A stretch of 32,732 bases of DNA from the NCBI GenBank assembly GCA_019347905.1, contig JAHWKJ010000005.1:1-32732 (forward strand). The letters run 5' to 3'. Both the position numbers and the translations under genes were made by a program. The notes beneath the pieces were generated by a model. The model made no database searches and was not told where the DNA came from. It saw nothing but the letters and a program-made list of their open reading frames with translations. Shown piece after piece: positions 2,285 through 32,732 of the stretch (the first letter of the stretch is position 1; each line of letters begins with the position of its first letter). The DNA comes from Planctomycetota bacterium (lineage in GTDB: Bacteria > Planctomycetota > Planctomycetia > Planctomycetales > Planctomycetaceae).

Positions 2285-2395
2285 CCCAGTGTCTGTGCAA
2301 CCCCTTCGGGGTAGCAACGCATTGGCGAGCTTCGCGTGCGGGGGTACGCTGCGCGAACCCCCGCCTTTGTTGTGAGAACCCCTTCGGGGTAAGCG
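2285..2395. repeat. Intergenic palindromic element: two ACCCCTTCGGGGT hairpins (2300-2312, 2378-2390) flanking GCGGGGGT...AACCCCCGC
   Basis: Read directly; lies between convergent genes, so may act as bidirectional terminator. Confidence 0.75.
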
Positions 2396-2411
2396 GCAAA
2401 GCGGCCGAGGC

Positions 2412-5387: not shown

Positions 5388-5496
5388 GAGACGGCCGACT
5401 TACAGGCACAGGCGAGGTGTCAGTCACAACCCCCACAAGATCGGTCCAGAAGACGCGGGGCATGAAGGAAAGGTTCCGGGCGTCTGGGACGCCAGC

Positions 5497-5946
5497 CTAA
5501 GTTCCTGTCAGAATGTGTTTTACGGAGTCGTCAATGCTCTGGAGGTAAGCGGCCAGCTTCTCGTGCAAGTTCGCGGTGAAGATGTCGCTTTCGAGGAGCT
5601 TTCCGGCGTCGTTGCGGACGGTAATATCCTCAACTTCGTCGAATTCGTAGTCCGGGTCTGCGAGGTTCACCAGCTTTCGCAGTTCCCGCGTGCGCGGCAG
5701 AAAACCGCGCTCCAGGTGGTCGATCAGCTCCCGCGTCATTCGTTCGGCGTGAATGAAACGATCGCTGAGGGTGAGTGCAGCGGGCGATACGTCGGCCACA
5801 GGCGACCTCGTGCCCAGTGAAAACAGAGTCCTGGATCGACGGGGAGCCGGACCGTTCCGACGGCAGGCCGGAACCGGCCACATGACCCATCGGGACCCCC
5901 CGGGAGAGTTGACTGCATTATCGAGACGGTTACGAACTTCCGTCAA
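5497..5946 (-). CDS. Conserved-looking hypothetical protein (start codon uncertain, probably internal)
   Basis: Acidic/helical C-terminal part SDRFIHAERMTRELIDHLERGFLPRTRELRKLVNLADPDYEFDEVEDITVRND... looks like real protein; N-terminus less so. Confidence 0.5.
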   Translation of the reverse strand: MTEVRNRLDNAVNSPGGSRWVMWPVPACRRNGPAPRRSRTLFSLGTRSPVADVSPAALTLSDRFIHAERMTRELIDHLERGFLPRTRELRKLVNLADPDYEFDEVEDITVRNDAGKLLESDIFTANLHEKLAAYLQSIDDSVKHILTGT

Positions 5947-6145
5947 GTCGATTGCTTCCCGTCGGCCCTCCGCATTAGATTGGAATTCACCCGGAGCCGC
6001 CGCCGCGGCTGTGGAATTTTTTCTTCCAACGTCGCTCTCCGTAGCTGCGTAAGTCGTTTGCGGGCGTTCCGGGTTTCATGTCTTGCGCTTCCGGTCGCTG
6101 ACGCCTCCGGCTGTTTCAAGCCGCCTCTCCAGTCGAAGGGCCTCG

Positions 6146-7102
<957 letters not shown>

Positions 7103-7169
7103 TCCCGACGGGACGCTCCGGCCCTTTCGTTCTTTCGATCCTTTCGACCTTCGACCCCCGCTGCCTGCC

Positions 7170-11332: not shown

Positions 11333-11358
11333 GCGGTGCGAGCGGCGTGAAATGAGCC

Positions 11359-11606
11359 GTTTAGCCGCGACTCGGAGTCTTCGGAGAGGAGCGCTCGGTG
11401 TCGACGAGACGCTACGGGTGCCACTGGTGGCTTGCCCACCAGTGTCGGACGCCAACACGTGACCCGATGCGGCACAGCGATCGACGGTGAGGAGGTAGGC
11501 GGATTTCTTCCAACATGGGCCGCCGCTCCCGCGCTCGGCACTGGTGGGCGAGCCACCAGTGCCACCCCTCGCGCTCCTCTGCAAAGCCTCCGCGTCGCGG
11601 CTAAAC
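11359..11606. repeat. Nested palindromic element: outer GTTTAGCCGCGAC...GAGGAGCGC / GCGCTCCTC...GTCGCGGCTAAAC, inner pair built on CACTGGTGG/CCACCAGTG
   Basis: Outer arms 11359-11395 and about 11575-11606; inner double palindromes about 11417-11444 and 11539-11566. Confidence 0.85.
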
Positions 11607-13076
11607 GCGGCTTGCCGCCGGGATGAGGCGTCGGAACTCCGCCAGATTCTCCCATTCGTCGAGCTTCCAGCAGGCGTCGAGCAGCCGATCCTGCTGCGCT
11701 TCGTCCAGCACGCCCGCGGCCGGCCGGCGGAACTTGGCGATCAGCTCCTCATCGCTCATCGGGTTCTGATCGTGGCCGCGGGGGAATTCGTTCTCCGCCG
11801 TGAGCCGCCGGCCGTCGTCCAGCGTCACCTCGATGCGGTTGGGAATTCCGCGGGGATACTTCGCCGTCAGCGCGGCATCCCGGTGAACGCGAACCTTCGC
11901 GACAAGTTCCAGCAGCCGCTCGTCGCGCAGCCGCTCGTCGCGGAACGAATCGAGCGTGACATCGCCGTCCATGAGTGCGACGGCGACGCAGTACGGCAGG
12001 CTGTGGTCGGCGGTCTCCCGGGTTTTCGGCCGCCACTTCTCGGGATCCTTGCCGATGATGTCCACCGCCGCGTCGAAGGACGCGATGTCGATGGACTTCA
12101 CCCGGTCCGGATCGCCAATCTGCGGCCGCAGCTCCAGCGCGGCATGGATGGCGCTTTGCGAGTGGTATTCGGCCGGCCAGAACTTGATCGACGTGCGGTC
12201 GATCATGAAGCCGCCGCCCTCCGTTTGCTGGAAAGGGGGACAGGCACCCTCACCGCTCCCGGCTTCCGGTACAAGTCCGGCATGGGGCCGGGAGCCAGTC
12301 CCCCTTTCCAGCGGACCGTCGCGTTCACCGCACAGCGGCTCTAGCTCGAATTCGCCCGAAACCTGACGGAAAAAACCCATCGTTCCCTCGAATAGCGGCG
12401 CCGGCCCCGTCAGTCCTTCGGCGGCGAGCAGTGCGGCGAACACGCCGTTCCGGGCCGCATTGGCGAACGCGCAGCCCTTCCATTCGGACAATTCGCCGGC
12501 GCGCGTCTGCCGCAGCGCGACGTTCGGCGTGCCGGCGAGGTTCAGCGCCTGCTCGATGCCGCCCGCGTCCAGTCCCAGCAGACGCGCGGCGGCGGCTGCC
12601 GTCGAAAACGCGCCGTAGGTCACATGGTCCCAGCCGCGGGCGCGAATGCTGGCGGCGTCGCACAGCCGGCACTGAATCTCATAGGCCAGGACGGTCGCAA
12701 CGATGATTTCGCGCCCGTCGGCCCCGGCCGCATCCGCCGCGGCGAACACGGCGGCGAGGTTGTCGCTGGGATGGGCCGGCTCCAGCGAGAGGTACGTGTC
12801 GTTGTAGTCGAGATAGCGGATGAGGACGCCGTCGGCGAACGCCGCCAGTTCCGGGCTGGTCCGCCGCTCGCCACCGCCGAGCCAGCCGGCGCCGCGCTCG
12901 CTCCGCGTGCGCACCGCCAGCCGCCGCGCGACGCTCGGCGCGTGCGCCCGCCACGCGCCGCACGCGCAGGCCAGCGAATCGATCACGCGCCGCTTGACCT
13001 CGTGCACGGTCGACGCATCGAGCTGCTCGTATCGCAGCGACTTCGCATAGGCAGCGAGGCGGGCGGCGAGGGTCAT
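11601..13076 (-). CDS. MmgE/PrpD family protein (2-methylcitrate dehydratase-like) with in-frame palindromic insertion
   Basis: MTLAARLAAYAKSLRYEQLDASTVHEVKRRVIDSLACA...; YNDTYLS; DRTSIKFWPAEYHSQSAIHAALEL. ORF-track N-terminal 65 aa come from an intergenic repeat; start taken at 13076. Confidence 0.9.
   Translation of the reverse strand: MTLAARLAAYAKSLRYEQLDASTVHEVKRRVIDSLACACGAWRAHAPSVARRLAVRTRSERGAGWLGGGERRTSPELAAFADGVLIRYLDYNDTYLSLEPAHPSDNLAAVFAAADAAGADGREIIVATVLAYEIQCRLCDAASIRARGWDHVTYGAFSTAAAAARLLGLDAGGIEQALNLAGTPNVALRQTRAGELSEWKGCAFANAARNGVFAALLAAEGLTGPAPLFEGTMGFFRQVSGEFELEPLCGERDGPLERGTGSRPHAGLVPEAGSGEGACPPFQQTEGGGFMIDRTSIKFWPAEYHSQSAIHAALELRPQIGDPDRVKSIDIASFDAAVDIIGKDPEKWRPKTRETADHSLPYCVAVALMDGDVTLDSFRDERLRDERLLELVAKVRVHRDAALTAKYPRGIPNRIEVTLDDGRRLTAENEFPRGHDQNPMSDEELIAKFRRPAAGVLDEAQQDRLLDACWKLDEWENLAEFRRLIPAASRV
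12227..12312. repeat. Palindromic element inside MmgE/PrpD CDS: GCTGGAAAGGGGGACAGGC...GCCAGTCCCCCTTTCCAGC with inner CTCCCGGC/GCCGGGAG
   Basis: Arms read directly; translates in frame as LERGTGSRPHAGLVPEAGSGEGACPPFQQ. Confidence 0.85.
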
Positions 13077-13113
13077 GCCTGGGGTCCAGAATTGGCCTTC
13101 GTTTCTAACGACC

Positions 13114-13314
13114 AGCCGCGGCAGCGGCGACAGACCGTAGCCCACGGCGCCAGCCGTGGGGCGACCAACACCCACGTCCGACGAAGCCCCGGAAGGGGCG
13201 AAAGAAGCCGAGTGTTCGTTCTGCCGCCCCTGCCGGGGCTCACCGAAGCGAGGTATCTCCAGTCTCCCCACGGCTTTCGCCGTGGGCTACGCTCTACCGC
13301 CGCTACCGCGGCTA
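13114..13314. repeat. Triple-nested palindromic element
   Basis: Outer AGCCGCGGCAGCGGCGACAGA / TCTACCGCCGCTACCGCGGCT; middle CGTAGCCCACGGC..GCCGTGGG / CCCACGGC..GCCGTGGGCTACG; inner AGCCCCGGAAGGGGCG / CGCCCCTGCCGGGGCT. Confidence 0.85.
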
Positions 13315-13326
13315 AGGCTCGCCATC

Positions 13327-14280: not shown

Positions 14281-14373
14281 GGGTCACCGGCTTTCGAGAG
14301 TATCTGATGCTGGGACGCATTGTAGTCCGCGCGGGTGGAATGAACAGAGGGCGCGAGGAATGACGAAGCTCGA

Positions 14374-17025
14374 ATGACGAAGCCCGCTACGATTCGCATA
14401 CGCGGTGCGCGCACGCATAACCTGCGGGGAGTCGACGTCGATATTCCGCACGGGCGGCTCGTCGTGCTCACGGGGGTCAGCGGCAGCGGGAAAAGCTCGC
14501 TGGCGTTCGACACCATCTTCGCCGAAGGGCAGCGGCGGTTCCTCGAGAGTCTCTCGGCGTACTCGCGGCAGTTTCTCGATCTGCTCCAGCGGCCCGACGT
14601 GGATGCCATCGACGGGCTGCCGCCCACCGTGAGCGTCGATCAGCGGACCGGGGCCGCGCAGCCGCGGAGCACGCTGGGCACGACAACCGAGATTCTCGAC
14701 TACCTGCGGCTCTTATACGCCCGAGCCGGCACCGCGCACTGCACCGGCTGTGGGCGCGAAGTGGCCGGGCAAAGCTCGCAGGCGATTGTCGAGCGAGTGC
14801 TCGCGCTGGGCGAGCGGCGGAAGGTGATGCTGCTCGCGCCGGTCGTCCGCGGACGCAAGGGGCAGCACCAGCAGGTGTTCGCCGACATCGCCGCGGCAGG
14901 CTTCGTGCGCGCCCGCGTCGATGGCGAGATTGCCGACATCGCGGAGCCTCCCGCGCTCGATGCCCGCCGCCGGCACACGATCGAGGCCGTCGTCGACCGG
15001 CTGGTGCTGAAGGAGGGCCTGCGGGGCCGCGTGCAGGAATCGGTCGATCTCGCGCTGCGCTACGGCGAGGGCACCTGCTCGGTCGTGTGGCAGGAAGACA
15101 ATGAGTGGCTCGAGCGGCTCTACAGCGAACGCTTCGCCTGTCCCGACTGCGGCCTGAGCTTCCCCACGCCAGAGCCGCGCACGTTCAGCTTCAACAGCCC
15201 CTACGGCGCCTGCCCGACGTGCGATGGGCTGGGAGTCGGCGCTCACCCCCCCTCACCCCCCCTTAGTAAGGGGGGGGCAGGGGGGGTCGAGGAGGTGAAG
15301 GTCGACGTTGAACTCGACACTGTACTCGCCTGCCCCGACTGCGGCGGCAGCCGACTCAACGACTTCGCCCGCCGCGTGACGATCGACGGCCGCAGCATCG
15401 CCGAAGTCTCCGCCATGAGCGTCGGCGACGCGGTTGTCTGGGCGGAGAATCTCCTGCGAGCGCTGCGCTCCTCGTCGCCGCCGTTCGCTCCCGAAGGCCG
15501 CGAAGTCGCCCTCCGCACGCTCCCGGAAGTCGCACGTCGGCTGCGCTTCCTCGTCGAAGTCGGGCTGGATTATCTCACGCTCGATCGCCGCACGCACACG
15601 CTCTCCGGCGGCGAGTTTCAGCGTGCCCGCCTGGCTGGATGCCTGGGATCGGGGTTGATCGGCACGTGCTTCGTACTCGACGAGCCGACAATCGGCCTGC
15701 ACCCGCGCGACACGGCGAAGCTGCTCACCGCACTGGAAGAGCTGCGCAATCAGGGCAACACCGTCCTCGTGGTCGAACACGACATCGACACGATGCGCCG
15801 CGCCGACTATCTCATCGATCTCGGCCCCGGAGCCGGTGCCGACGGCGGACGCATCGTCGCCACCGGCACCCCCGCTGAAGTGGCCACCGCGAATGATTCA
15901 CTCACAGCGCGCTACCTCTCCCACGACGACACTGCCACATTTCCCCCCCTTACTAAGGGGGGGCCAGGGGGGGGTGGCCGCAGAGCACGTCGCCTCATCC
16001 CACAAGGCCTCCTGCGGCTCGAGCAGGTTGGCACCCACAACCTCCAAAACGTCACCGTCGAGTTCCCGCTGGGCCTGTTGACCTGCGTCACAGGCGTCAG
16101 TGGCTCCGGCAAAAGCTCACTGGTGATCGATTCGCTGGTGCCGGCGGTGCGCGACGCGCTGGCAAGCCCGCGGGTTCGGGCCCGTGGGCGCTGGGGACTT
16201 CTTTCAGGCGCCGAAGCCATCGACCGCCTCGTGCAGGTCGATCAGTCGCCGCTGGGACGCAGCGGCCGCTCGAATCCTGCCACGTACTCGGGCGTGTGGA
16301 ACGAGGTGCGGCAGGTATTCGCCACCACCCGCGAGGCGCGCTTGCGCGGCTTCACCGCGCGGCGATTCAGCTTCAACTCGCGCGACGGCCGCTGTGAGAC
16401 CTGCGCCGGCCGCGGCACGCGCCGCATCGAGATGCAGTATCTGCCCGACCTGTTCGTCGCGTGCGAAACCTGCCGCGGGGCGCGGTTCAACCGGCAGACG
16501 CTGTCGATCCGCTATCGCGGCAAGAGCGTGGCCGACGTGCTGGCGATGCGGTTCGACGAGGCGCTTGGCTTCTTCGAGAACTTCCCGCGGATTGTCTCGC
16601 GATTGAAGACGTTTGTGGACGTGGGGCTGGGCTACCTGTGCCTGGGGCAATCGTCGCTGGATCTGTCCGGCGGCGAAGCCCAGCGGGTGCGGCTGGCGAC
16701 GGAGTTAGGCCGCCCCGCCTCCGGCCGCACGCTGTTCGTGCTCGACGAGCCGACCACCGGCCTGCACCCGGCCGACGTCGAACGCCTGCTGAACGTGCTG
16801 CACCAACTGGTGGACCGCGGCGACACCGCGATTGCGATCGAGCACCATCTGGACGTGATGGCCAATTCCGACTGGCTGATCGACCTCGGCCCCGAAGCCG
16901 GCGCCGCCGGCGGCGAGATCCTGTTTGAAGGTCCGCCGCACGAGATCGCCAGCGCCCGCGGCCACACGGCCGCCGCGCTGAGCGAGTTCCTGTCGGCCGC
17001 TCGTGTCACGCCGACGGGCGGTTGA
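14374..17025 (+). CDS. uvrA: UvrA-like excinuclease subunit A (ABC-type ATPase) carrying two in-frame palindromic insertions
   Basis: GVSGSGKSSLAFDTIFAEGQRRFLESLSAYSRQFL; LSGGEFQRARLAGCLGSGL; second half GVSGSGKSSLVIDSLVP, LSGGEAQRVRLATELGR, VLDEPTTGLHPADVERLL; CxxC zinc motifs. Confidence 0.9.
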   Translation: MTKPATIRIRGARTHNLRGVDVDIPHGRLVVLTGVSGSGKSSLAFDTIFAEGQRRFLESLSAYSRQFLDLLQRPDVDAIDGLPPTVSVDQRTGAAQPRSTLGTTTEILDYLRLLYARAGTAHCTGCGREVAGQSSQAIVERVLALGERRKVMLLAPVVRGRKGQHQQVFADIAAAGFVRARVDGEIADIAEPPALDARRRHTIEAVVDRLVLKEGLRGRVQESVDLALRYGEGTCSVVWQEDNEWLERLYSERFACPDCGLSFPTPEPRTFSFNSPYGACPTCDGLGVGAHPPSPPLSKGGAGGVEEVKVDVELDTVLACPDCGGSRLNDFARRVTIDGRSIAEVSAMSVGDAVVWAENLLRALRSSSPPFAPEGREVALRTLPEVARRLRFLVEVGLDYLTLDRRTHTLSGGEFQRARLAGCLGSGLIGTCFVLDEPTIGLHPRDTAKLLTALEELRNQGNTVLVVEHDIDTMRRADYLIDLGPGAGADGGRIVATGTPAEVATANDSLTARYLSHDDTATFPPLTKGGPGGGGRRARRLIPQGLLRLEQVGTHNLQNVTVEFPLGLLTCVTGVSGSGKSSLVIDSLVPAVRDALASPRVRARGRWGLLSGAEAIDRLVQVDQSPLGRSGRSNPATYSGVWNEVRQVFATTREARLRGFTARRFSFNSRDGRCETCAGRGTRRIEMQYLPDLFVACETCRGARFNRQTLSIRYRGKSVADVLAMRFDEALGFFENFPRIVSRLKTFVDVGLGYLCLGQSSLDLSGGEAQRVRLATELGRPASGRTLFVLDEPTTGLHPADVERLLNVLHQLVDRGDTAIAIEHHLDVMANSDWLIDLGPEAGAAGGEILFEGPPHEIASARGHTAAALSEFLSAARVTPTGG
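15245..15287. repeat. G/C-run palindrome, copy 1 of PPxPPLxKGGxGG family
   Basis: ACCCCCCCTCACCCCCCCTTAGTAAGGGGGGGGCAGGGGGGGT; translates PPSPPLSKGGAGGV. Confidence 0.9.
15943..15975. repeat. G/C-run palindrome, copy 2
   Basis: CCCCCCCTTACTAAGGGGGGGCCAGGGGGGGGT; translates FPPLTKGGPGGGG; located between the two ATPase halves. Confidence 0.9.
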
Positions 17026-17144: not shown

Positions 17145-18632
17145 ATGGCCACTGTCCACCTCTTGCGCCGCATCGTGCCAGCCGCGTTCGTTGTCGGCTG
17201 GCTGGTGTCTCCCCTGACAGCGCAGGTCGGAGGCGTCTACATCGACGCCGCCGGCATGCTCCGCGAGACGGCCACGCTGGCGCCCGACGACCGGCTCGAT
17301 CTGGTGCGGCGGCACCTCGTGGGGCAGGCTGTTTCCGATGACGTGGCGGCGGAGAGTGCGCTGCGAAAGGTTTCGCTCGCGCGGCTGGAGGCTCGCGTGC
17401 AGGCGCTGCGCGAGGCCGGACAGGATCTGCCGGCCGACGTTGAGTATCTCGCCGGGCTGACGGCCGTGCGTTACGTGTTCTTCGACGCCGCCGGCCGCGA
17501 CGTAATCGTAGCCGGTCCCGCGGAGGGGTGGACTCTGGCAGACAGCGGCGAGGTCGTCGGCGTGCGGTCAAACCGCCCCGTGCTGCATCTCGATGATCTG
17601 ATCGTGGCCCTGCGGTATGCTTTCGCCCGCGAGCCTTTCGGTCCCCCCCCTTACGAAGGGGGGGTTAGGGGGGGTGACGGCGATACGACACGTGATCTTG
17701 CTCGGACCCCCCCTGGCCCCCCCTTAGCAAGGGGGAGAACAGAGGAGGCCGGGTTCATCGGTTGCTCGATCGAGCCGACGGCCGAGGGCGTGACGCGTTA
17801 TGCGTCCTACATGCGAAAGCTGAGCGGCATCGACCGCTCGCAGCCGGGGGCGGTTTTCGCCGGCATGGAACAGGCCATGGGTCCTCAGGACGTCAAGCTG
17901 TACGGCGTCGACGGATCGAGCCGCTTCGCGCTGGTGATGGTCGCCGCCGATTATCGTCTCAAGCGCATCGCGCTCGGCCACGATCCCTCGCCGGTGCGCG
18001 ACGTGGTGAACTACCTCGACTTGTGCGTCCGGCGCTTCAACCGCCGGGCGGTGTCGCGGCAGCACCGCTGGTGGTTCACGGCCGGCTACGATGCGGTGTA
18101 CCACACGCCCGACGAGCTGGCCTTCGAGCTGTCGGGCCACGGCGTAAAAGTGGTGACTGCCCAGACACTGCCAGGGCAGGCCGACGACGACGACACGGAC
18201 GAACCCTCCAGCCCCAACGCAAAGCTGTTTGCTGAAACGTTCACGCGGCACTTCGAGGACGTGGCGGAGAAGGTGCCGGTGTTCCAGGAACTCCAGAACC
18301 TCATCGGCCTGGCGACGCTGGCAGAACTGATCGCGGAGAAGTTCGAGGTCGGTCCGGGCGACGACGCGCCGGCGACATGGCGGCCACGGCATTTCCTCGA
18401 CGAGGACGCCTGCCCCATCGCCCGTTATCCGGTGCCGAAGATGGTCCCCTCGCTGGCCAACTTCCGCCTGGCCGGCGGCCGGCACTGGATCATCTCCATC
18501 AGCGGCGGCGTCGAAATCCAACCACGCGAGCTGACCGCCCGCCGCGTACGAAAGGCGGCCCCCGACGGCAGCCTGACGGAACTGCACGGGCACGCGGTAT
18601 CGCGCTCGGGCGAAGGGTGGTGGTGGGATTGA
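17145..18632 (+). CDS. Secreted hypothetical protein (possibly the planctomycete DUF1598 family, from memory) with two in-frame palindromic insertions
   Basis: Signal peptide MATVHLLRRIVPAAFVVGWLVSPLTAQ; continuous ORF to 18632; family name is recollection only. Confidence 0.8.
   Translation: MATVHLLRRIVPAAFVVGWLVSPLTAQVGGVYIDAAGMLRETATLAPDDRLDLVRRHLVGQAVSDDVAAESALRKVSLARLEARVQALREAGQDLPADVEYLAGLTAVRYVFFDAAGRDVIVAGPAEGWTLADSGEVVGVRSNRPVLHLDDLIVALRYAFAREPFGPPPYEGGVRGGDGDTTRDLARTPPGPPLARGRTEEAGFIGCSIEPTAEGVTRYASYMRKLSGIDRSQPGAVFAGMEQAMGPQDVKLYGVDGSSRFALVMVAADYRLKRIALGHDPSPVRDVVNYLDLCVRRFNRRAVSRQHRWWFTAGYDAVYHTPDELAFELSGHGVKVVTAQTLPGQADDDDTDEPSSPNAKLFAETFTRHFEDVAEKVPVFQELQNLIGLATLAELIAEKFEVGPGDDAPATWRPRHFLDEDACPIARYPVPKMVPSLANFRLAGGRHWIISISGGVEIQPRELTARRVRKAAPDGSLTELHGHAVSRSGEGWWWD
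17643..17675. repeat. G/C-run palindrome, copy 3 (different reading frame)
   Basis: CCCCCCCCTTACGAAGGGGGGGTTAGGGGGGGT; translates PPPYEGGVRGG. Confidence 0.85.
17706..17738. repeat. G/C-run palindrome, copy 4 (third reading frame)
   Basis: ACCCCCCCTGGCCCCCCCTTAGCAAGGGGGAGA; translates TPPGPPLARGR. Confidence 0.85.
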
Positions 18633-20474: not shown

Positions 20475-22495
20475 GACGCCGCTTCTCCTGCGAGGTCGAA
20501 GACCGTCCGTCCCCGGACCGACTCCAGCCGCTGCCGCATCACCGGATCCTCGGCCCACCGGGGCACAAGGGCCGCCGGCGCCACGATCTGCCGCCTGCGC
20601 AGCTCGTGCAGAAAGGGCACGTGCCTCAGTGCGATTTTCCCGACCAGCAGCGGATCGATGTCGTGCCCTTGTGCCAGCCACTCCAACAGATCGCGAAAGC
20701 CTCGCAGATAGACGGCGTCTTTGGGGAATCCGCCGGCGCGGTACACGCGCATCGTCGTCTGGAAGGCCTGCCGCGCGGAGAAGCCATACTCCCCGCGCAG
20801 ACGGTCGTGCGTTTCTGCAAACGGTGCGCCGTCGATCATCATCGCGGCGGCGACGACGCGGGCGGCGAGATGCCTTAGCCGGCCCGCCGTCAGCCCGCCG
20901 GCCACGTACTCCGCGAGCACGGCCAAGCCTTCCTGCAGCCCCTCGTATTTTGCCAGTCCCCATGCGAGCAGACCCAGCGGCTGCAGGCCGCCGTTGATAT
21001 ACGTGACCAGGTGCGTGCCCACCTCGTGGTGCAGCAGCGGCGTCACCCGCGCGCGGCGAAGGGCGGTGTCGCGGGCCACCAGCACGCGGCTCCGCGAGAC
21101 CATCAGCGCCGAAACGATGCCGTCGCAGACTTCGACCACCGCCTGCAGGTCCGGGAGCTGCTGCCGGTAGTGACTGATCTCCTCGCGCACGGCCGCCGCG
21201 ATTTCATCAGCGCTGAGGAATTCCCCGTTTAGCCGCGACTCGCCGTTTAGCCGCGACTCGGAGAGGAGCGCTTTGTCGCGCGGTCGAGCGCTCCCCTCCG
21301 GGTCGCGGCTAAACGCTTCGCAGCTACGCGGTCCGCGGCTGAACGAACCGTCATCGTCCTCGTTGTCGGCGGGCCCCTGGAGCAGTCGCTCGGCCATCGC
21401 CAGCAGGTCCGCTTCCACCGGGCCATAAAGCTGCAGCGCGGAGTACAGGAAGTCGCGGGAATTGCGGTCGCGCAGCGCGCTCAGTTGCCGGTCCAGCTCG
21501 TCGCGCTTCTCCCGCAGCAGGTGCGCCAGCGTGGGATCCTCGATGTCATCCACAGGAATCGAGAACAGCCGCCGCTTCAGCTTCGCCGGGCTGAACGGCT
21601 GCGGGCGGTAATAAAACTGCGGCGTCTGGCGGCAGCCATCGGCACAGAACTCCTGCCAGGCCTCTTCCGCGTTGACCGGCGTAACCTGCAGCAGGAAGTC
21701 ATAAGCAGCCGCGATGTCGCGCAGCCGCCGGTCCACGTCGCCCACGGACCGTTCCAGTTCCCGCGGACCGAGATCCTCGATGTGCACAAATGGCTCGGAC
21801 GTTTCGACCTCAATCCCGGCGAACGTAAACGCGGCGCGGCGAATCGCCCGCGAAAGCTGCCGCCTCAGGCCGCGCAGGACAAATGGAAACCGGCGTCCGG
21901 CCTCCAGGTCGCGATACACCGGCGCGACCTCCAGGCCCAGCTTCACCACGCCGGCGCCGCTCTCGCCGGCCTCGATCAGCGGAGGCAGCCCCGGCGGCGC
22001 GACCGGATCGGCGTACCGCACCCTCACCGTTGCCTCCAGACCGCCGAGGCGAATGCGCTCGAGCTCGTCGCGCAGGGCCGCCACGGTGGTCGGGACTTCA
22101 GCGGGGTCGCGGCTGACGATCGTGAAGGCCGGCCGACGCTCAGGACCGCTTTCGTCGGCACCCGACCAGATCTCGATCAGGACAAAGGCACCGAAGTGCT
22201 CGCGCAGCGTCTGGCCGAGCTCCCGGCACAGCCGCAGGATCAGCGGCTGCGCGGCCGGGTCGCCGGACGAGATCAAGAAAGCCGCCTCGGTCGTCACCAG
22301 CCGCGCGGTGCCGGGATCGTCTCGCTCGTGCGGCCGGCGATAGACGCACAGGAAGGGAAGCTGCCGCTCGATCCGCAGGCGTCCGCCGGCCGGCAGCCGC
22401 CGGTCGACGGGTCGGTTCTGCGCGAACCGTCTCAACAGGCCCGCGAAGAGCCGGCGGAAGCGACGGTCGATGGCGCGCTCAGTCGCCGCTTCCAC
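20471..22495 (-). CDS. DUF1704 'flavohemoglobin expression-modulating QEGLA motif' putative metallopeptidase
   Basis: LLHHEVGTHLVTYINGG (HExxxH) and YEGLQEGLAVLAEYVAGGL; stop overlaps gshB-like start (ATGA at 20474-20471). Confidence 0.88.
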   Translation of the reverse strand: MEAATERAIDRRFRRLFAGLLRRFAQNRPVDRRLPAGGRLRIERQLPFLCVYRRPHERDDPGTARLVTTEAAFLISSGDPAAQPLILRLCRELGQTLREHFGAFVLIEIWSGADESGPERRPAFTIVSRDPAEVPTTVAALRDELERIRLGGLEATVRVRYADPVAPPGLPPLIEAGESGAGVVKLGLEVAPVYRDLEAGRRFPFVLRGLRRQLSRAIRRAAFTFAGIEVETSEPFVHIEDLGPRELERSVGDVDRRLRDIAAAYDFLLQVTPVNAEEAWQEFCADGCRQTPQFYYRPQPFSPAKLKRRLFSIPVDDIEDPTLAHLLREKRDELDRQLSALRDRNSRDFLYSALQLYGPVEADLLAMAERLLQGPADNEDDDGSFSRGPRSCEAFSRDPEGSARPRDKALLSESRLNGESRLNGEFLSADEIAAAVREEISHYRQQLPDLQAVVEVCDGIVSALMVSRSRVLVARDTALRRARVTPLLHHEVGTHLVTYINGGLQPLGLLAWGLAKYEGLQEGLAVLAEYVAGGLTAGRLRHLAARVVAAAMMIDGAPFAETHDRLRGEYGFSARQAFQTTMRVYRAGGFPKDAVYLRGFRDLLEWLAQGHDIDPLLVGKIALRHVPFLHELRRRQIVAPAALVPRWAEDPVMRQRLESVRGRTVFDLAGEAAS
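21225..21344. repeat. GTTTAGCCGCGAC palindromic element inside DUF1704 CDS, with tandem-duplicated left arm
   Basis: CCGTTTAGCCGCGACTCG x2 (21225-21260), GAGAGGAGCGCT...AGCGCTCCCCTC, GTCGCGGCTAAACG, then degenerate TCCGCGGCTGAACG; translates SFSRGPRSCEAFSRDPEGSARPRDKALLSESRLNGESRLNGE. Confidence 0.88.
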
Positions 22496-22527
22496 GCGAG
22501 GCCTCCGAATCTTTCACAAACAATCTT

Positions 22528-22690
22528 CTAACCACGGATATCACGGATTGCCACGGATTGAGCAGTCAGCCTTGCCCAAGAGGGGGATGCCTGCTCAGGC
22601 GACAGCAACAGAACTCCGACGGGATAATCTTCTCCCTTGGGCAAAGCAACGGGGAGTTCAAATCAGTGCCATCCGTGATATCCGTGGCTA
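22528..22690. repeat. Nested palindrome: outer CTAACCACGGATATCACGGAT / ATCCGTGATATCCGTGGCTA; inner CTTGCCCAAGAGGG / CCCTTGGGCAAAG
   Basis: Read directly; fills the FGase/DUF1704 intergenic gap and overlaps the FGase 3' end. Confidence 0.85.
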
Positions 22691-23508: not shown

Positions 23509-23583
23509 GCGGCCGTTTCTCCCTCCCCTCGGAGATTCCCCGAGCGAGGGGCAGCATCGTTCGTGCCAGCGCCCGGGACGCAA

Positions 23584-23718
23584 CGTTTATCCGCGACTCC
23601 AGAGGAGCGCTCCGCACAGCGTGAGGCCCGTAGTGCAAGCTGCCAGCTTGCCTCGTTGTGGGAGCGGCACAAGCTGGCAGCTTGTGACTACGCTCCTCTG
23701 TCGAGTCGCGGCTAAACC
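23584..23718. repeat. Nested palindrome: outer CGTTTATCCGCGACTC..GAGGAGCGC / GCTCCTC..GAGTCGCGGCTAAACCG; inner GTAGTGCAAGCTGCCAGCTTGC / CAAGCTGGCAGCTTGTGACTAC
   Basis: Same outer family as 11359 and 21225 but different inner palindrome. Confidence 0.88.
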
Positions 23719-23781
23719 GGCTGGATAAAATGGCGTCAGGCTGCGCGCAAAGCGACCAGCCGCCTCCAGGACAACAGCGGC

Positions 23782-24807: not shown

Positions 24808-25043
24808 AGAATATGCCCACGTCTCTCATTCCCGCACACGCCAGGTCGCTGGCTCCACGGTCTGGCAGGCCGTGCCACGTGTGCCCGTGCAACCGCCGCG
24901 CCGTCTTCAGCGGGTTTCGCCGCGCGCATCGGAGGCACGAATCTTGCAATTCCGAGGGTGCGGTGGTTTACTGCTGTGGGGCCGTTTGCGCTTCTCACGG
25001 CAATCGGGTCCCACCTTGCCGCCCTTTTTCGGACCTGCCTCCC

Positions 25044-25628: not shown

Positions 25629-25676
25629 GCCCGCAAAGCACGAAGGGCCGGACGACGGCTTCAGGTCGAGAAGAGT

Positions 25677-25802
25677 CTTAACGCAAAGACGCCAAGGACG
25701 CAGAGACACGCAAAGCCTTTTGATTCGGCCCTCATTGCAGCATTCCCAACCCGCGATTTATGTCTTTGCGAACCTCTGCGTCCTCCGCGTCTTTGCGTTA
25801 CA
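25677..25802. repeat. Palindromic element ACGCAAAGACGCCAAGGACGCAGAG / CTCTGCGTCCTCCGCGTCTTTGCGT
   Basis: Arms read directly; sits between sigma factor and FHA gene. Confidence 0.88.
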
Positions 25803-25836
25803 AATTGAATCGCTTCCAGACTCGCGACTTCGACAG

Positions 25837-26496: not shown

Positions 26497-26500
26497 TAAC

Positions 26501-26589
26501 TCGTAGAGCAAGCGTCCCGCTTGCTCCCATCTTCCCGAGGCCGAACTTCCTACCAAGCAACTCGCACAAGCGGGACGCTTGTGCTACGA
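26501..26589. repeat. Palindromic element TCGTAGAGCAAGCGTCCCGCTTGCTCC / GCACAAGCGGGACGCTTGTGCTACGA
   Basis: Between convergent FHA and EEP genes; each arm is itself a palindrome. Confidence 0.88.
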
Positions 26590-26595
26590 CGGAAC

Positions 26596-27576
26596 CTACT
26601 GACGCTGGATCGGACGCGAGGCGAGCGGCACGCTGCGGCCTTCGCGGGCGCTGAAGACTGCGTACACCGGCAGGTGGTCGGAAACCGCGAGCGCCGCCTC
26701 TTCGCCCAGCCCGTACTCGGCCGTCAGGTCCAGGACGCCGCTCCGGCCTGTGAACTCCACCGTCGATCGCCGGTTGAAGACGACGTTGTCGTACGTCTTC
26801 GTCCGCCGCGTATTGGTCGGCATGCCCGAGATCGCCCAGCCAATATCGGGCAACCGCCCGAGCTGGCCGAAATGAGTCTCATCGACGTTGAGATCGCCGA
26901 GCAGGATCACATCGTCTTCGCCGCCCGGCTCGCGCTGCACGCCCACGAACACGTCGTCGAGCGCATCGAGTTCTGTGTCGGTCTCGTCCGGGTCGGTATG
27001 AATGTTGATCAGCGTGAAGCTGAACGGCTGCGGTGAGGACGAGCCGCGCACGCGGAACGTCGCCACGAGCGGCTCGCGGTGCAGCCGGTCCTCTGGATCG
27101 TAAGCGGTGTACACCGAGCGCGGCACGACCTCGATCCGCGACGTGTCGTAGACGAAGGCATACTGCTCCTTGCTCGACGTGCGGCCCAGCCGTTCTCCCA
27201 GCAGGAAGTCGAATTGGCTGCCGTCGGCGTTAATCGCGCGGACGAACTGCGGCACAACCGTCTGGTCCACCGAGCGAATCTCCTGAATCGCCAGCACGTC
27301 GAACCGCCGGGCGACGTTCACGAGCACCTCCATCACGTCGGGCTTCCCGAGCTTCGACGTGCCGAAGACCTGGATGTTGAACGAGCCGACGGCAATCGTG
27401 TCGTCGCCCTTGCCGACGTCGGCCAGTCCGGCGGGCGTTGGACGACTCGCCGTGTCCGCGGCCTTCGAGCCGGAAAGTCCGCTGAGTCCGCTGAGGAAGT
27501 CTTCGGCGTTGCAACCGGCGGCAAACGCCGCGGCCGCGAGCGACGAAACGAGCAGCAACCGGCGAGCGCAAAGCAT
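26596..27576 (-). CDS. Endonuclease/exonuclease/phosphatase (DNase I-like) family lipoprotein
   Basis: Lipobox AAFAAGC; GSFNIQVFG, LAIQEIRS, LINIHTDP, ILLGDLNVDETHFG, VSDHLPVYAVF. Confidence 0.9.
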   Translation of the reverse strand: MLCARRLLLVSSLAAAAFAAGCNAEDFLSGLSGLSGSKAADTASRPTPAGLADVGKGDDTIAVGSFNIQVFGTSKLGKPDVMEVLVNVARRFDVLAIQEIRSVDQTVVPQFVRAINADGSQFDFLLGERLGRTSSKEQYAFVYDTSRIEVVPRSVYTAYDPEDRLHREPLVATFRVRGSSSPQPFSFTLINIHTDPDETDTELDALDDVFVGVQREPGGEDDVILLGDLNVDETHFGQLGRLPDIGWAISGMPTNTRRTKTYDNVVFNRRSTVEFTGRSGVLDLTAEYGLGEEAALAVSDHLPVYAVFSAREGRSVPLASRPIQRQ

Positions 27577-27599
27577 ACGTGGCCTCCCTGCCGCGTGTG

Positions 27600-27613
27600 A
27601 CGGGGTCCGACCC
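27600..27613. repeat. Short palindrome CGGGGTCCGACCCC just upstream of EEP start
   Basis: Read directly; resembles the core of the GGGGAC/GTCCCC family. Confidence 0.5.
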
Positions 27614-27722
27614 CTTTCTTCGTCCATAGAAAACGGGCCGGGAGAATAGCCACATGCTGACATCCGGGTCCAGACAGGTTCGGCGCTTGAAACGCCGTGC
27701 CCTCCGCGGCAGACTTGTCTCC

Positions 27723-29981
27723 ATGAGCGTCGCCTCCACGTCGACCGTTCCGGATACCACTCAGCTCGCCGGCGTGCTGCAGCGGTACTGGGGGTACGAT
27801 GGCTTCCGGCCGCTGCAGGAAGAGGCCATGCGCAGCGTACTCGCCGGGCGCGACTCGGTGGTCGTGCTGCCGACCGGCGGCGGGAAGTCGCTGTGTTTTC
27901 AGGCGCCGGCGATGTGCCTGGACGGGCTGGCGGTCGTGGTCTCGCCGCTGATCTCGCTGATGAAAGACCAGGTCGATGCGCTCACGACCTGCGGTGTGCC
28001 GGCGGCCTGCGTCAACAGCACGCTCACGCAGCGCGAGAAACTCACCGTGGCGGATGCGATCCGCGGCGGACGGCTGCGACTGTTGTACGTCGCGCCCGAG
28101 CGTCTCGTGCAGGACCGCACGCTCGAATTCCTCAAGTCCGTCAACGTCTCGCTGTTCGCCGTCGACGAGGCCCACTGCATCAGCCAGTGGGGGCACGATT
28201 TCCGCCCCGAGTACCGCGCGCTCAACGTCCTCAAGCGCGAGTTTCCCGGCGTCGGCGTCCACGCGCTGACCGCCACCGCGACCGAGCGCGTGCGGCACGA
28301 TATCGTCCGCAACCTGGAGCTTCACGACCCGCAGATCTTCGTCGGCTCGTTCGATCGTCCGAACCTCGTGTACCGCGTCGAGCGCCGCAACAAAGTGCTG
28401 GGGCAGATTCGCGCCGTTCTCGAGCGAAACGCCGGCGAATCGGGCATCGTGTACTGCATCAGCCGGGCCGAAGTCGACCGCACAGCGGCGGCCCTCAAAG
28501 AAATGGGCTACCGCGCGCTGCCCTATCACGCCGGTATGAGCGACGACGACCGCCGCCGCAATCAGGAGGCGTTCATCGAAGACCGGGCGGAAATCATCGT
28601 GGCGACGGTCGCCTTCGGCATGGGCATCGACAAACCCGACGTGCGGTATGTCGTCCACGCCGGCATGCCCAAGTCGCTGGAGCACTACCAGCAGGAGAGC
28701 GGCCGCGCGGGTCGCGACGGGCTGCCGGCCGAGTGCTGCCTGTACTACTCCGGCGGCGACGCCCTGACCTGGAAGCGGATGATCGACAAGGGCGAGCCGC
28801 GCTCCCGCGAAGGAGCCACGGCTGCCCTGCAGGCCATCTCGGACTACTGCACCGGCGTCGTCTGCCGGCACCGGGCGCTGGTCGAGCACTTCGGCCAGAG
28901 TTACAGCAATGGTGGGACCACAGGCTGCGGGGGGTGCGACGTCTGCCTGGGGCAACTCGACCTCGTCGATGAGCCGCTGATTGTGGGCCAGAAGATCCTG
29001 TCGAGCATCGTGCGGCAGGGCGAGCGCTTCGGCGGCGACTACACCGCGATGGTGCTCTCCGGTTCGGAAGACCAGCGGATCCTGCAGCACGGCCACGAGA
29101 AGCTCAGCACGTGGGGCATCCTCGCGGACGAAAACCGCCGTACGATCCGCGATTGGATCGAGCAGCTTGTCAGCCAGGGCTTCGCCAGAAAGACCGGCGA
29201 GTACAACGTCCTCTCGGTGACGGAAGACGGCTGGCGACTGTTGCGGGGAGAAATGGCCCCAAGGCTGCTGCGGCCCAGCAAGCCGTCGAAAGCGACTTCC
29301 ACGTCGCCCGCGGCAGAAGTCTCCTGGGAAGGCGTGGACCGCGGATTGTTTGACGACCTGCGGGCGCTGCGGCGCGAACTGGCCGATGATCGCGGCGTCC
29401 CGCCCTACGTCGTCTTCGGCGACGCGGCCCTGCGCGACATGGCCTGCCGGCGGCCGACTACGCTCGAAGGTTTTCGGGCCGTCCGCGGAGTGGGCGAGAA
29501 GAAGCTCGAAGATTACGGCGCGATGTTCATCGAGCGGATTGCCCACTGGTGCCGCGAGCACGACCTGCCGACGGATGTCGAAGTGAAGTTTCCGCCGCCG
29601 GAGCCTGCCGGTGAGGCCGTTCCGTGGACGCCGAGCGGGAGTGCACTAGCGACGTTTACGCTGTTTCGGGCCGGCCGGTCGATCGATGACGTGGCGCGCG
29701 AAACTGGCCGCGCCCGTTCGACGGTGCAAGGCTACTTGAACGACTATCTGCGGCACGAGCGGGTGACGGATCCCTCGCCGTGGGTGGACGCGGAAATCGC
29801 CAACGCCATCGAAGCGGCGGCAGCCGAAGTCGGCTTGGAGCGGCTGAAGCCGGTGTACGAAGCCTTGGGCGGCCGCATCGACTACGACGCGATTCGCATC
29901 GTGGTCGAGTGCCTGCGGAACCGCGAAATGGCCGAGGCGGGATTCGAACCCGCACGGGGGTTGCCCCCCACAGGATTTTAA
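27723..29981 (+). CDS. recQ: ATP-dependent DNA helicase RecQ, 3' end overlapping antisense tRNA-Leu
   Basis: [81 protein letters not shown]; zinc Cys set, HRDC-like [12 protein letters not shown]. Confidence 0.95.
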
Positions 29982-30014
29982 GTCCCGTGCGTCTGCCTGT
30001 TCCGCCACTCGGCC
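29929..30014 (-). tRNA. tRNA-Leu (anticodon UAA)
   Basis: Minus strand GGCCGAG TG GCGGAACAGGCAGACGC ACGGGACTTAAAATCCTG, long variable arm TGGGGGGCAACCCCCG, T-arm TGCGGGTTCGAATCCCGC, acceptor CTCGGCC, discriminator A. Confidence 0.95.
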
Positions 30015-30126
30015 ATGCGGCGTGTTGCCGGCTTCATCCGGCCCTTGCAGATCCTTGTTGCCGCCTGAGGCAAGTAGACAATCGTTTGCCGGCGCGGTCA
30101 AATGAAGGCCCGCGGCTGACCGACAG

Positions 30127-30193
30127 ATCAGCCGGCACGCGCTAGCGTCCGGTTTGCACGGTGGGAACCGCGGGCTAGCGCCCGGCGGCTGAT
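30127..30193. repeat. Palindrome ATCAGCCGGCACGCGCTAGCGTCCGGTT / AACCGCGGGCTAGCGCCCGGCGGCTGAT
   Basis: Long imperfect hairpin upstream of PSCyt1/PSD1 gene. Confidence 0.88.
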
Positions 30194-30259
30194 TTCATGA
30201 CTCGAATTCTTAGCCCTGACACTGCCCTGGTCCCGCCTTGTCCACGCTGGAGCCTGCCT

Positions 30260-32732
30260 ATGCTCCTCTGCCGCTCTGCTTGCCGGCACACCGCCGGGAC
30301 CCTGTTCGTTGCGCTCGCAATCGCCGCCGCGTCACTGCGTGCCGATGAGGGCGGCTCGGAAGCGGCGTCTTCCGGCGCGAAGAAGGTCAATTTCGCCGCC
30401 GAGGTGGCGCCGCTGTTCGCGAAGCACTGCCAGGACTGCCACGGGCCGGAGTTGCAGGAAGGGCAGTTGCGGCTGGATGCGAAGGCGTCGGTGTTCCGCG
30501 GCGGCGTGTCGGGGGCGGCCGTCGTCGCCGGCAAGAGCCGCAACAGCCTGCTCGTCCGGCGCTTGCTCGGCGCAGGCGACGAACCGCGAATGCCGCTCGA
30601 TGCCGATCCGCTGACGCAGGCAGAGATCGAGTTGATTCGCGCTTGGATCGATCAGGGGGCCGAGTGGCCCGATGGCTTCGGTGCGCACATCGAAACGGCA
30701 AGGCACTGGGCGTACGTGAAGCCGGCACGGCCCGCGGTTCCGCCGTTTGTAGTGACCCGCTTCAGCGGGTCGAGAGCAAGTGACGTGTCTGTCGACGACC
30801 GCCTGAAGGCGGTCACTACGAGCGAGTGGGTCCGCAATCCGATCGATGCCTTCGTGCTGGCGCGGCTGGAAGCCGCGGGCATGGACCCCGCACCAGAGGC
30901 GAGTAAGGAGCGGCTGCTGCGCCGGGTGACGCTCGATCTGACGGGACTGCCGCCGACCCTCGATGAGCTCGATGCGTTTCTGGCCGACGACAGCCCCGAT
31001 GCGTACGAGAAAGTAGTCGACCGGCTGCTGGCTTCGCCGCGTTACGGTGAACGGTGGGCGGTGCCCTGGCTCGATGCCGCCCGCTACGCAGATTCCAACG
31101 GCTATCAGCGCGACGGCCGCCGCGAGTACTGGGCCTATCGCGACTGGGTGGTGCGGGCGCTGAACGTCGACATGCCCTTCGACCGGTTTACGATCGAACA
31201 GATTGCGGGGGATCTGCTGCCGGATCCCTCGCTCGAGACGCGCATCGCCACCGGGTTTCATCGCGGGACGATGGCCAATGTCGAAGCGGGCACCGACCCC
31301 GAGGAAGAGCACGTGCTGGCCGTCATCGACCGGGTGAACACCACCGGCACCGTCTGGCTCGGCAGCACGCTGGAATGCGCCCAGTGCCACAACCACAAGT
31401 ACGATCCCTTCTCCCAGAAGGAGTATTATGGGCTGTATGCGTTCTTCAACAATACGGCGAAGGAAATCGAAAGCAGCGGCTCGACGCGGGAATTCACCGG
31501 TCCCAAGCTCGCGCTGCCTCTGAACGAGGAACAACGAGAGCAGCAGAACGAGCTGCGGGCGAAGCTGTCCGCCGCCGAGGCCGCGGTCGAAGCGGTCCGC
31601 GCCCGTTTGAAGAACGAGCAGCCCGCCTGGGAAGGAGAGATCGCCGCCTCCGACGGCGCGGGGTGGCAGGTGCTAGAACCCGAGGTCGCGCTCTCCGCCG
31701 AGGGTGCGGATCTGAAGAAGCTGGAAGACTCGTCGCTGCTCGCCGGCGGCGATTTTCCGGCGACCGATATTTACACCGTCACGACACGCACTGACATCGG
31801 CGAGATCACCGCATTCCGGCTGGAAGTGCTGACGGATCCGTCGCTGCCGGACGGCGGCCCCGGCCGTGCGAAGCCGGGGAACTTCATTCTGTCGGAGTTC
31901 AAGGTGGAAGCGGCTGCCGGCGACCCCCCCGCACCCCCCCTTGCCAAGGGGGGGCCTGGGGGGGTCGAAAAGTCCGACGCCTTTACCACGCTGGACCTCG
32001 CCCGCGCGACGGCCGATTTCTCGCAGCCGAAGTGGCCGGTCGAAGGCGCCATCGACGGCAACCGCAAGACCGGCTGGGCGATCGCCAAAGAGTTCGGCCG
32101 CCCGCATCGCGCGGTGTTCGTGCTCAAGCAGCCAATTCGGGGCGAAAGATCGCGGCGGCTCAGGTTCACGCTCGACCAGCAGTACGGCAACTCGCGGACG
32201 ATCGGCCGTTTCCGCCTGCTGGCGACGGCGGGCGAGCCGGAACTGCTCGGCGTCCCGGCCGACATCCGCGGCCTCGTCGAGATGCCGGTGGAGAAGCGGA
32301 CGCCGAAACAGGCGAAGCAACTGGAAGAGTTCTACCTTTCGCAATCCAGCGAGCTACAGCCGCTCGAAGGGAAACGCAAAGAACTCCAGGAGCAGTTGGC
32401 CGCCATCGAGCCGCCCACGACGCTGGTCATGCAGGAACTCGACGAGCTGCGGATGACGCGCATGTTCAAGCGCGGCGACTTCCTGAACCCCGGCGAGGAG
32501 GTCGAGCCCACGACGCCGGCGGCACTGCATCCATTGCCGGAAACAGGCGAAGGCCAACGGCCCGACCGCCTGTCGCTCGCCCGCTGGCTGGTAGACGGCG
32601 AGAACCCGCTGACGGCCCGCGTGATCGTCAACCGGCAGTGGCTCTCGCTCTTCGGCCGCGGCCTCGTCGACACGCCGGAAGACTTCGGCACGCAGGGCGA
32701 ACCGCCGACGCACCCGCAACTGCTCGACTGGC
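30260..32732 (+). CDS. PSCyt1 / DUF1549 (PSCyt2) / DUF1553 (PSD1) domain secreted protein, truncated at right window edge
   Basis: Not in ORF track because it runs off the end. MLLCRSACRHTAGTLFVALAIAAASLRA; heme-type CQDCH; LLRRVTLDLTGLPPTLDELDAFL; YGERWAVPWLDAARYADSNGYQRDG; LECAQCHNHKYDPFSQKEYYGLYAFFNNT; ...RLSLARWLVDGENPLTARVIVNRQWLSLFGRGLVDTPEDFGTQG. In-frame alternative ATG at 30197. Confidence 0.92.
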   Translation, partial: MLLCRSACRHTAGTLFVALAIAAASLRADEGGSEAASSGAKKVNFAAEVAPLFAKHCQDCHGPELQEGQLRLDAKASVFRGGVSGAAVVAGKSRNSLLVRRLLGAGDEPRMPLDADPLTQAEIELIRAWIDQGAEWPDGFGAHIETARHWAYVKPARPAVPPFVVTRFSGSRASDVSVDDRLKAVTTSEWVRNPIDAFVLARLEAAGMDPAPEASKERLLRRVTLDLTGLPPTLDELDAFLADDSPDAYEKVVDRLLASPRYGERWAVPWLDAARYADSNGYQRDGRREYWAYRDWVVRALNVDMPFDRFTIEQIAGDLLPDPSLETRIATGFHRGTMANVEAGTDPEEEHVLAVIDRVNTTGTVWLGSTLECAQCHNHKYDPFSQKEYYGLYAFFNNTAKEIESSGSTREFTGPKLALPLNEEQREQQNELRAKLSAAEAAVEAVRARLKNEQPAWEGEIAASDGAGWQVLEPEVALSAEGADLKKLEDSSLLAGGDFPATDIYTVTTRTDIGEITAFRLEVLTDPSLPDGGPGRAKPGNFILSEFKVEAAAGDPPAPPLAKGGPGGVEKSDAFTTLDLARATADFSQPKWPVEGAIDGNRKTGWAIAKEFGRPHRAVFVLKQPIRGERSRRLRFTLDQQYGNSRTIGRFRLLATAGEPELLGVPADIRGLVEMPVEKRTPKQAKQLEEFYLSQSSELQPLEGKRKELQEQLAAIEPPTTLVMQELDELRMTRMFKRGDFLNPGEEVEPTTPAALHPLPETGEGQRPDRLSLARWLVDGENPLTARVIVNRQWLSLFGRGLVDTPEDFGTQGEPPTHPQLLDW
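30749..30819. repeat. Double-hairpin palindrome inside PSD1 CDS: GTAGTGACCCGCTTCAGCGGGTC / GACCGCCTGAAGGCGGTCACTAC
   Basis: Translates in frame as VVTRFSGSRASDVSVDDRLKAVTT. Confidence 0.88.
31924..31967. repeat. G/C-run palindrome, copy 5, inside PSD1 CDS
   Basis: CCCCCCCGCACCCCCCCTTGCCAAGGGGGGGCCTGGGGGGGTC; translates PPAPPLAKGGPGGV. Confidence 0.9.

What the first reader, a model, noticed from the sequence alone, without database searches (positions are those of the whole stretch)
2285..31967. Dense set of nested palindromic elements, about ten families in 33 kb, both between and inside genes
At least ten distinct palindromic sequence families occur here (2285, 11359, 12227, 13114, 15245, 22528, 25677, 26501, 30127, 30749, plus further copies). 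They share an architecture: outer inverted arms, with each arm often a palindrome itself, and at several sites one family sits inside the loop of another. This looks like a population of small non-autonomous elements that use each other's loops, and open coding loops, as landing sites. REP/BIME elements and Rickettsia palindromic elements (RPEs) are known analogues, but many unrelated families nested in one genome is unusual. No transposase or RAYT-like gene is visible in this window.
Basis: partly seen in the sequence, partly recalled or inferred. Interest (0 to 1): 0.85.

Follow-up and report, generated by a model that had tools for sequence, protein, structure and literature searches.

The report
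Nested mobile palindromes, some inside genes
This planctomycete genome carries more than ten families of short hairpin-forming mobile repeats that sit between genes, inside each other and, for one family, mostly inside genes without breaking them; one family is listed in the public RNA catalogue as a small RNA ("Acido-Lenti-1") but sits around transposase genes like a transposon end.

Summary
The listed sites are real inverted repeats of about eleven families, nearly all multi-copy: CGTTTAG type 199 arms, C7-TT-N3-AA-G7 163 copies, CACGGAT 31 arms, ACGCAAAG 31 arms, Acido-Lenti-1-like at least 53; reversed-pattern controls are near zero and distribution across relatives is patchy. Nesting exceeds chance: 7 of 47 CGTTTAG pairs hold another family in the loop (0.5-0.8 expected). 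The 13114 nest, however, is a fixed module that recurs whole. Six sites lie inside coding sequence; three are cleanly absent, in frame, from orthologues. Mobilisers exist outside the window: five of six HUH/Y1 transposase genes are flanked by palindromes. The CGTTTAG foot also flanks homologous transposases in other planctomycetes. Both 13114 arms pass Rfam's cut-off for RF01687 (Acido-Lenti-1 "sRNA"), which flanks IS200-like transposases in several genomes, so that "RNA" is probably a transposon end. These are REP/REPIN-RAYT-type elements. Multi-family genomes, intragenic REPs (even paired in uvrA) and REPs inside palindromes are already published. New here: the CGTTTAG-footed group, the Acido-Lenti-1 link, mixed-family nesting, and a non-GTAG family that is mostly intragenic in one favoured reading frame.

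The parts
11358..11607 (.). Family A unit (CGTTTAGCCGCGACTCG outer arms) with a family C pair nested in its loop
11410..11573 (.). Family C pair (GTGG-type foot + CACTGGTGG/CCACCAGTG hairpins), nested in A
21226..21315 (.). Family A single arm (21226-21242) followed by a complete A unit without insert (21244-21315)
23584..23718 (.). Family A unit with a GTAG-tagged family H pair nested in its loop
23630..23691 (.). Family H REPIN (GTAG-TGCAAGCTGCCAGCTTG ... CAAGCTGGCAGCTTGTGA-CTAC), nested in A; same junction as in L059
13114..13313 (.). B/L module: L arm, GTAG-tagged B hairpin, inner L pair, B hairpin, L arm; a fixed module that recurs in the genome
13114..13160 (-). Left arm of the B/L module = Rfam RF01687 Acido-Lenti-1 (41.2 bits, cut-off 37)
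13267..13313 (+). Right arm of the B/L module = Rfam RF01687 Acido-Lenti-1 (40.2 bits, cut-off 37)
12227..12312 (.). Family D palindrome inside the MmgE/PrpD gene, between its two domains; about 34 residues absent from 10 of 10 orthologues
15245..15287 (.). Family E unit inside the UvrA homologue, reads HPPSPPLSKGGAGGV
15943..15975 (.). Second family E unit inside the same UvrA homologue, reads FPPLTKGGPGGGG
17638..17743 (.). Inverted pair of family E units inside the DUF1598 gene
31921..31967 (.). Family E unit inside the PSCyt/DUF1549/DUF1553 gene, reads DPPAPPLAKGGPGGV; about 14 residues absent from nearly all orthologues
30744..30824 (.). Family I REPIN (GTAG-TGACCCGCTTCAGCGGGTC ... GACCGCCTGAAGGCGGTCA-CTAC) in frame in the PSCyt gene; about 22 residues absent from 19 of 19 orthologues
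26501..26589 (.). Family H2 REPIN (GTAG-AGCAAGCGTCCCGCTTG ...), between genes
22529..22690 (.). Family F element (ACCACGGATATCACGGAT arms)
25679..25800 (.). Family G element (AACGCAAAGACGCCAAGGACGCAGAG arms)
2285..2395 (.). Family K composite (AACCCCTTCGGGGT and GGGGGTACGCTGCGCGAACCCCC), related to the palindromes flanking the L032 transposase
30125..30192 (.). Family J palindrome (ATCAGCCGG..GCTAGCG .. CGCTAGC..CCGGCGGCTGAT); low copy, two further full-length copies (L064, L226)

Best explanation
The palindromes are populations of REP/REPIN-type non-autonomous elements, each copied, now or formerly, by its own Y1 (HUH) transposase of the IS200/RAYT kind, which recognises a short foot plus a hairpin in single-stranded DNA. 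Three groups are visible: (i) GTAG- or GTGG-footed hairpins in inverted pairs (B, H, I, C; and M beside its transposase); (ii) CGTTTAG-footed palindromes (A) with their own Y1 group; (iii) the Acido-Lenti-1-like B/L module around IS200-like genes. Families E, F, G, D and J have the same general anatomy but no transposase was found for them. Elements persist where insertion is harmless: intergenic gaps, the loops of other palindromes, and variable protein loops. Shown here: copy number, patchy distribution, foot tags, transposase association for A and B/L, excess nesting, in-frame presence/absence. Inferred: transposition as the cause, single-stranded loops as preferred targets, selection as the filter for in-frame copies.
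For: Copy number with near-zero controls and patchy distribution. GTAG within 3 nt of the stem in 50 of 59 hairpins of B, H, I, M; GTGG in 8 of 10 of C. Y1 genes flanked by palindromes: L036 on both sides by A-type; its relatives L266, L270, L271, L273 on both sides and L272 on one side by CGTTTAG/CGTTTAA/GTTAGCC-footed palindromes with different stems; L035 by GTAG hairpins; L033; L032 by K-type; L031 by B/L type. RF01687 above cut-off beside 4 of 12 IS200-like loci, sub-threshold beside 3 more, and beside 0 of 40 other Y1 loci. Nesting 7 against 0.5-0.8 expected. Empty orthologous sites.
Against: No transposition or strain-level polymorphism was observed; the empty sites are in orthologues only 45-73% identical. 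No cognate transposase was found for E in four E-bearing genomes, nor for H, I, C, F, G, D. Several L036 relatives show no CGTTTAG flank (L267-L269, L285, L288). No target duplications were established. Contig ends in this draft genome may hide transposases.
Confidence: 0.82

Rival explanations
1. The palindromes are kept as functional RNA structures (sRNAs, terminators, mRNA stabilisers); Rfam files the 13114 arms as Acido-Lenti-1 sRNA.
For: RF01687 match above the curated cut-off; most A, H and B units lie between genes; strong hairpins.
Against: Patchy presence in relatives, inverted paired copies, location around transposase genes, and copies inside genes in a coding frame are not expected of a host sRNA. 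Secondary regulatory roles are not excluded.
Confidence: 0.1
2. Nesting is co-amplification: composite units formed once and copied as a whole, not repeated insertion into loops.
For: The B/L module at 13114 recurs intact in L063, L081, L095; the H-in-A case has the same junction in the window and in L059.
Against: A loops hold at least four different inner families, and family C lies at different positions in the A spacer; 40 of 47 A pairs carry no insert.
Confidence: 0.35
3. Family E is not mobile DNA but a selected peptide linker (PPLxKGGxGG) spread by recombination between genes.
For: 36 of 41 copies are in genes, 26 in one frame; no transposase found.
Against: In G056 and G008 most copies are intergenic units with a conserved non-coding foot and tail, often as inverted pairs; DNA-level palindromes are near perfect, beyond what the peptide needs.
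Confidence: 0.12
4. Chance palindromes in a 66% G+C genome.
For: Generic short hairpins do occur often by chance: 90 in 220 kb against 31-46 in shuffles.
Against: Family-specific counts exceed reversed-pattern controls by one to two orders of magnitude for the main families.
Confidence: 0.01

Closest known systems
GTAG-tagged REPs, BIMEs/REPINs and RAYT (TnpA-REP) transposases (PMC3733652, PMC3116915, PMC8266576)
   Same: Short hairpins with a GTAG foot in inverted pairs, many copies, Y1 transposase flanked by its own repeats; several families can share a genome (R. baltica, O. terrae, S. maltophilia)
   Different: Most families here (A, E, F, G, D, Q, O) have no GTAG foot; more families than usual in one genome; frequent intragenic copies
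TIR/TIRYT elements (PMC3733652) and class 3 TnpA-Y1 of Planctomycetes (PMC6006769)
   Same: Y1 genes flanked by longer, non-GTAG inverted repeats that also occur as dispersed copies
   Different: Conserved foot here is CGTTTAG, not CnGA or GGGGWSAS; assignment to a published subclass was not tested
Acido-Lenti-1 RNA, Rfam RF01687 (PMC2864571)
   Same: The two outer arms at 13114 pass the curated cut-off
   Different: Described as a candidate sRNA; here it occurs as inverted pairs and around IS200-like transposase genes
Rickettsia palindromic elements and other intragenic REPs (PMC3733652)
   Same: In-frame palindromic inserts in unrelated genes, no dedicated transposase known; uvrA among the reported targets
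   Different: Family E foot is CGAC, not CGTC; sequence unrelated as far as the foot shows; favoured reading frame
REP dimers inside longer palindromes (A. variabilis GTAG-15, T. roseum GTAG-23, H. neapolitanus CGTC-1; PMC3733652)
   Same: One palindrome inside another
   Different: There each REP family has one host palindrome; here one host family (A) holds at least four different inner families

Membership tests
GTAG REP / REPIN | GTAG (or GTGG) foot 5' of the stem | tested here: met
   B, H, I, M: 50 of 59; C: GTGG 8 of 10
GTAG REP / REPIN | GTAG foot, for families A, E and Q | tested here: not met
   0 of 80, 0 of 37 and 0 of 60; these are REP-like only in behaviour
GTAG REP / REPIN | Two hairpins in inverted orientation with a spacer | tested here: met
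GTAG REP / REPIN | Cognate RAYT gene flanked by the same repeat | tested here: inconclusive
   Met for M (L035); none found for H, I, C in this draft genome
REPtron-like Y1 group with CGTTTAG foot (family A) | Y1 gene flanked by the family, also in relatives | tested here: met
   L036 and relatives L266, L270, L271, L272, L273; absent at L267-L269, L285, L288
Acido-Lenti-1 (RF01687) | Covariance model score at or above the curated cut-off of 37 bits | tested here: met
   41.2 and 40.2 bits
Acido-Lenti-1 (RF01687) | Expression as a small RNA | not testable with these tools
   No expression data
Rickettsia palindromic element / CGTC REP | CGTC foot (family E) | tested here: not met
   Consensus foot CGACCCCCCCTG
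Rickettsia palindromic element / CGTC REP | In-frame insertion in genes | tested here: met
MITE of a DDE transposon | Target site duplication and terminal repeats matching a DDE transposase element | not tested
   No close empty site to read a duplication from; DDE transposases not searched

The most novel reading that the evidence does not exclude
One bacterial genome hosts an interacting community of more than a dozen HUH-mobilised palindrome families, in which the single-stranded loop of one family is a preferred target for others. One family (E: 41-nt core, about 42-nt insert measured at one site) keeps the reading frame and adds a stop-free PPLxKGGxGG linker, so it can live mainly inside genes. 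The Rfam 'RNA' Acido-Lenti-1 is not an RNA gene but the end of an IS200-like element.
Probability: 0.35. Interest if true: 0.8.

Novelty: new variant of a known kind. Interest (0 to 1): 0.6.

Why it matters
It points to a probable correction of a public RNA family (RF01687), whose copies have been read as possible regulatory RNAs. It indicates a CGTTTAG-footed transposase/palindrome group with changing stems across planctomycetes, useful for asking how Y1 transposases recognise their repeats. It is a dense natural case of one repeat family lying inside another and of mobile DNA adding peptides to working proteins, including a UvrA homologue with two inserts; paired REP inserts in uvrA were reported before in Opitutus terrae and Thioalkalivibrio (PMC3733652).

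Tried and rejected
A generic hairpin scan gave only a twofold excess and no clear foot signal; family-specific tests were needed. A transposase beside E copies was sought in four E-bearing genomes and not found. The short J pattern equals its control. Papers naming the E or Q peptides: none. The search 'REPIN, RAYT, nested' found no relevant paper. One nested hit (L042:14781) was rejected as part of the host hairpin itself. The search for relatives of the L036 protein returned one likely spurious locus (L274, 23 residues). Chance and 'single-copy' readings were rejected by the copy counts.

Full report
Observation. The window is a complete contig (C429) of a 6.18 Mb, 779-contig genome. Its genes (PSCyt/DUF1549/DUF1553, DUF1598, an UvrA homologue, MmgE/PrpD, RecQ) and the named records of relatives of one of its transposases point to Planctomycetota.

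Copy number. Whole-genome pattern searches with reversed-pattern controls give 199 family A arms (control 0), 163 family E palindromes (control 0), 31 F arms and 31 G arms. In relatives the families are patchy: of 99 genomes A is abundant only in this one, G089 (125), G036 (49), G098 (38) and G043 (16); E only in this one, G008 (78), G056 (68), G045 (21), with 8 in G094. Families C, H, I, D, B/L, and also O and Q (not present as full units in the window), are multi-copy in a 0.68 Mb sample. J and K are low-copy. The refutation criterion 'single copy' is therefore not met. Part of the sample was chosen from contigs carrying A and a later part for E, F and G, so densities are not genome averages; the nesting and frame tests do not depend on that choice.

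Anatomy. Hairpins of B, H, I and M carry GTAG within 3 nt of the stem in 50 of 59 cases; C carries GTGG in 8 of 10; A, E and Q never carry GTAG. A arms share the foot CGTTTAGCCGCG followed by one of two arm types, with a variable spacer. E is directional: CGACCCCCCCTG-C7TT-nnn-AAG7-GAGAA. The 13114 element is L-B-L..L-B-L nested threefold; the same arrangement recurs in L063, L081, L095 and partly L039, so it is a module rather than a series of landings in the window.

Mobilisers. The genome has six Y1 (PF01797) genes. L036 is flanked on both sides by CGTTTAGCCGCGGCCC palindromes, the second arm type of family A. Relatives of this protein in other planctomycetes carry CGTTTAG, CGTTTAA or GTTAGCC feet with quite different stems on both sides (L266, L270, L271, L273) or one side (L272), as expected if transposase and repeat coevolve; L267-L269, L285 and L288 show none. 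L035 is flanked by GTAG-GTCCCGCC hairpins, L033 by its own palindromes, L032 by palindromes related to window family K, and L031 by the B/L type. Only the truncated L034, at a contig end, lacks a clear flank.

Acido-Lenti-1. Rfam scanning of the window gave two matches above the curated threshold to RF01687, exactly the two outer arms of the 13114 module. The family has at least 53 matches in this genome and matches in 51 of 99 genomes searched, with none in 14 control genomes; many are in inverted pairs under 200 nt apart. Of 12 IS200-like Y1 loci, four carry it within about 160 nt of the gene at the curated threshold and three more below it, on both sides in L277. By eye both sides are present in L031, L275 and L276. 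None of 40 other Y1 loci has it at the threshold. The original report lists it as a candidate RNA (PMC2864571) and a recent paper speculates on regulation (PMC13298647). The simpler reading is a transposon-end hairpin.

Nesting. Of 47 convergent A pairs, seven hold another family's unit: C in L042, L092 and the window; H in L059 and the window; O in L063; Q in L083. An eighth scored case is a chance match, and a further C case (L076) was not counted because a called gene overlaps it. Expected numbers are 0.8 with uniform placement in noncoding DNA and 0.5 with placement within the same intergenic gap. Counting the two H cases as one event leaves six, P about 2e-4 under the milder null. C lies at different positions in the A spacer, which argues for repeated insertion; H lies at the same junction twice, which allows either reading. 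The gene caller is a crude codon-usage script, so noncoding length is approximate.

Inside genes. Orthologues show in-frame absences: about 34 residues at 12227 in MmgE/PrpD (10 of 10 orthologues, flanks contiguous in G031), about 22 residues at 30749 and about 14 at 31921 in the PSCyt gene (19 orthologues). The two UvrA inserts lie in loops of variable length, so their exact empty site is less clear. Family E is the notable case. In the sample not selected for E, 20 of 21 copies are inside genes; with further contigs 36 of 41, of which 26 read PPLxKGG, 7 are in a second frame and 3 in the third, which usually contains a stop. In G008 and G056 most copies are intergenic (6 of 14 and 4 of 14 intragenic). 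A 41-nt core and an approximately 42-nt insert at 31921 would keep frame, but one measured site is not proof.

Mechanism. The best-supported account is hairpin-plus-foot recognition by Y1 transposases on single-stranded DNA, as known for TnpA-REP and IS200/IS605 (PMC8266576 abstract, PMC6006769). Loops of existing hairpins may be favoured because they are exposed single strands, or may simply be safe ground; the excess over the local null favours a real preference without proving it. Frame conservation is most simply selection against frameshifts.

Known or new. PMC3733652 already reports several REP families in one genome including R. baltica, REPs within longer palindromes, and intragenic REPs, among them double insertions in both uvrA genes of O. 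terrae and in Thioalkalivibrio uvrA. The general phenomenon is therefore known. The CGTTTAG-footed group, the reassignment of Acido-Lenti-1, the mixed-family nesting and the mostly intragenic E family are, as far as the held library shows, not described.

Noticed in passing
window 13114-13160 (-), 13267-13313 (+); L031, L107, L108, L111, L275, L276, L277: Rfam RF01687 (Acido-Lenti-1 'sRNA') matches the arms of the 13114 module and flanks IS200-like transposase genes in several planctomycete genomes; probably a transposon end rather than an RNA gene.
   Followed up: partly
window 14374-17025: The UvrA homologue has two separate family E inserts; paired palindrome inserts in uvrA are reported independently in Opitutus and Thioalkalivibrio, so uvrA may be a recurrent target or unusually tolerant.
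   Followed up: partly
L079, L080, L081, L086, L088, L089, L090 (same genome): A further family (Q, GGGGTCTGACCCC pairs) also lies in genes in frame, reading AKGSDPFADER or PQRGQTP; 16 of 55 arms are intragenic.
   Followed up: no
L246 (G008), L248 and L251 (G056): Inverted pairs of family E lie 28 residues apart at about three quarters of the length of three proteins of 1062-1109 residues; possibly the same protein family and the same loop hit repeatedly.
   Followed up: no
L249-L256 (G056): Inter-E spacers in G056 contain another palindrome, GACCGCTTCGCGGTC, so nesting also occurs with E as the outer family.
   Followed up: no
window 29929-30014 (-): A tRNA gene on the minus strand overlaps the 3' end of the RecQ open frame (27654-29981, +).
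   Followed up: no
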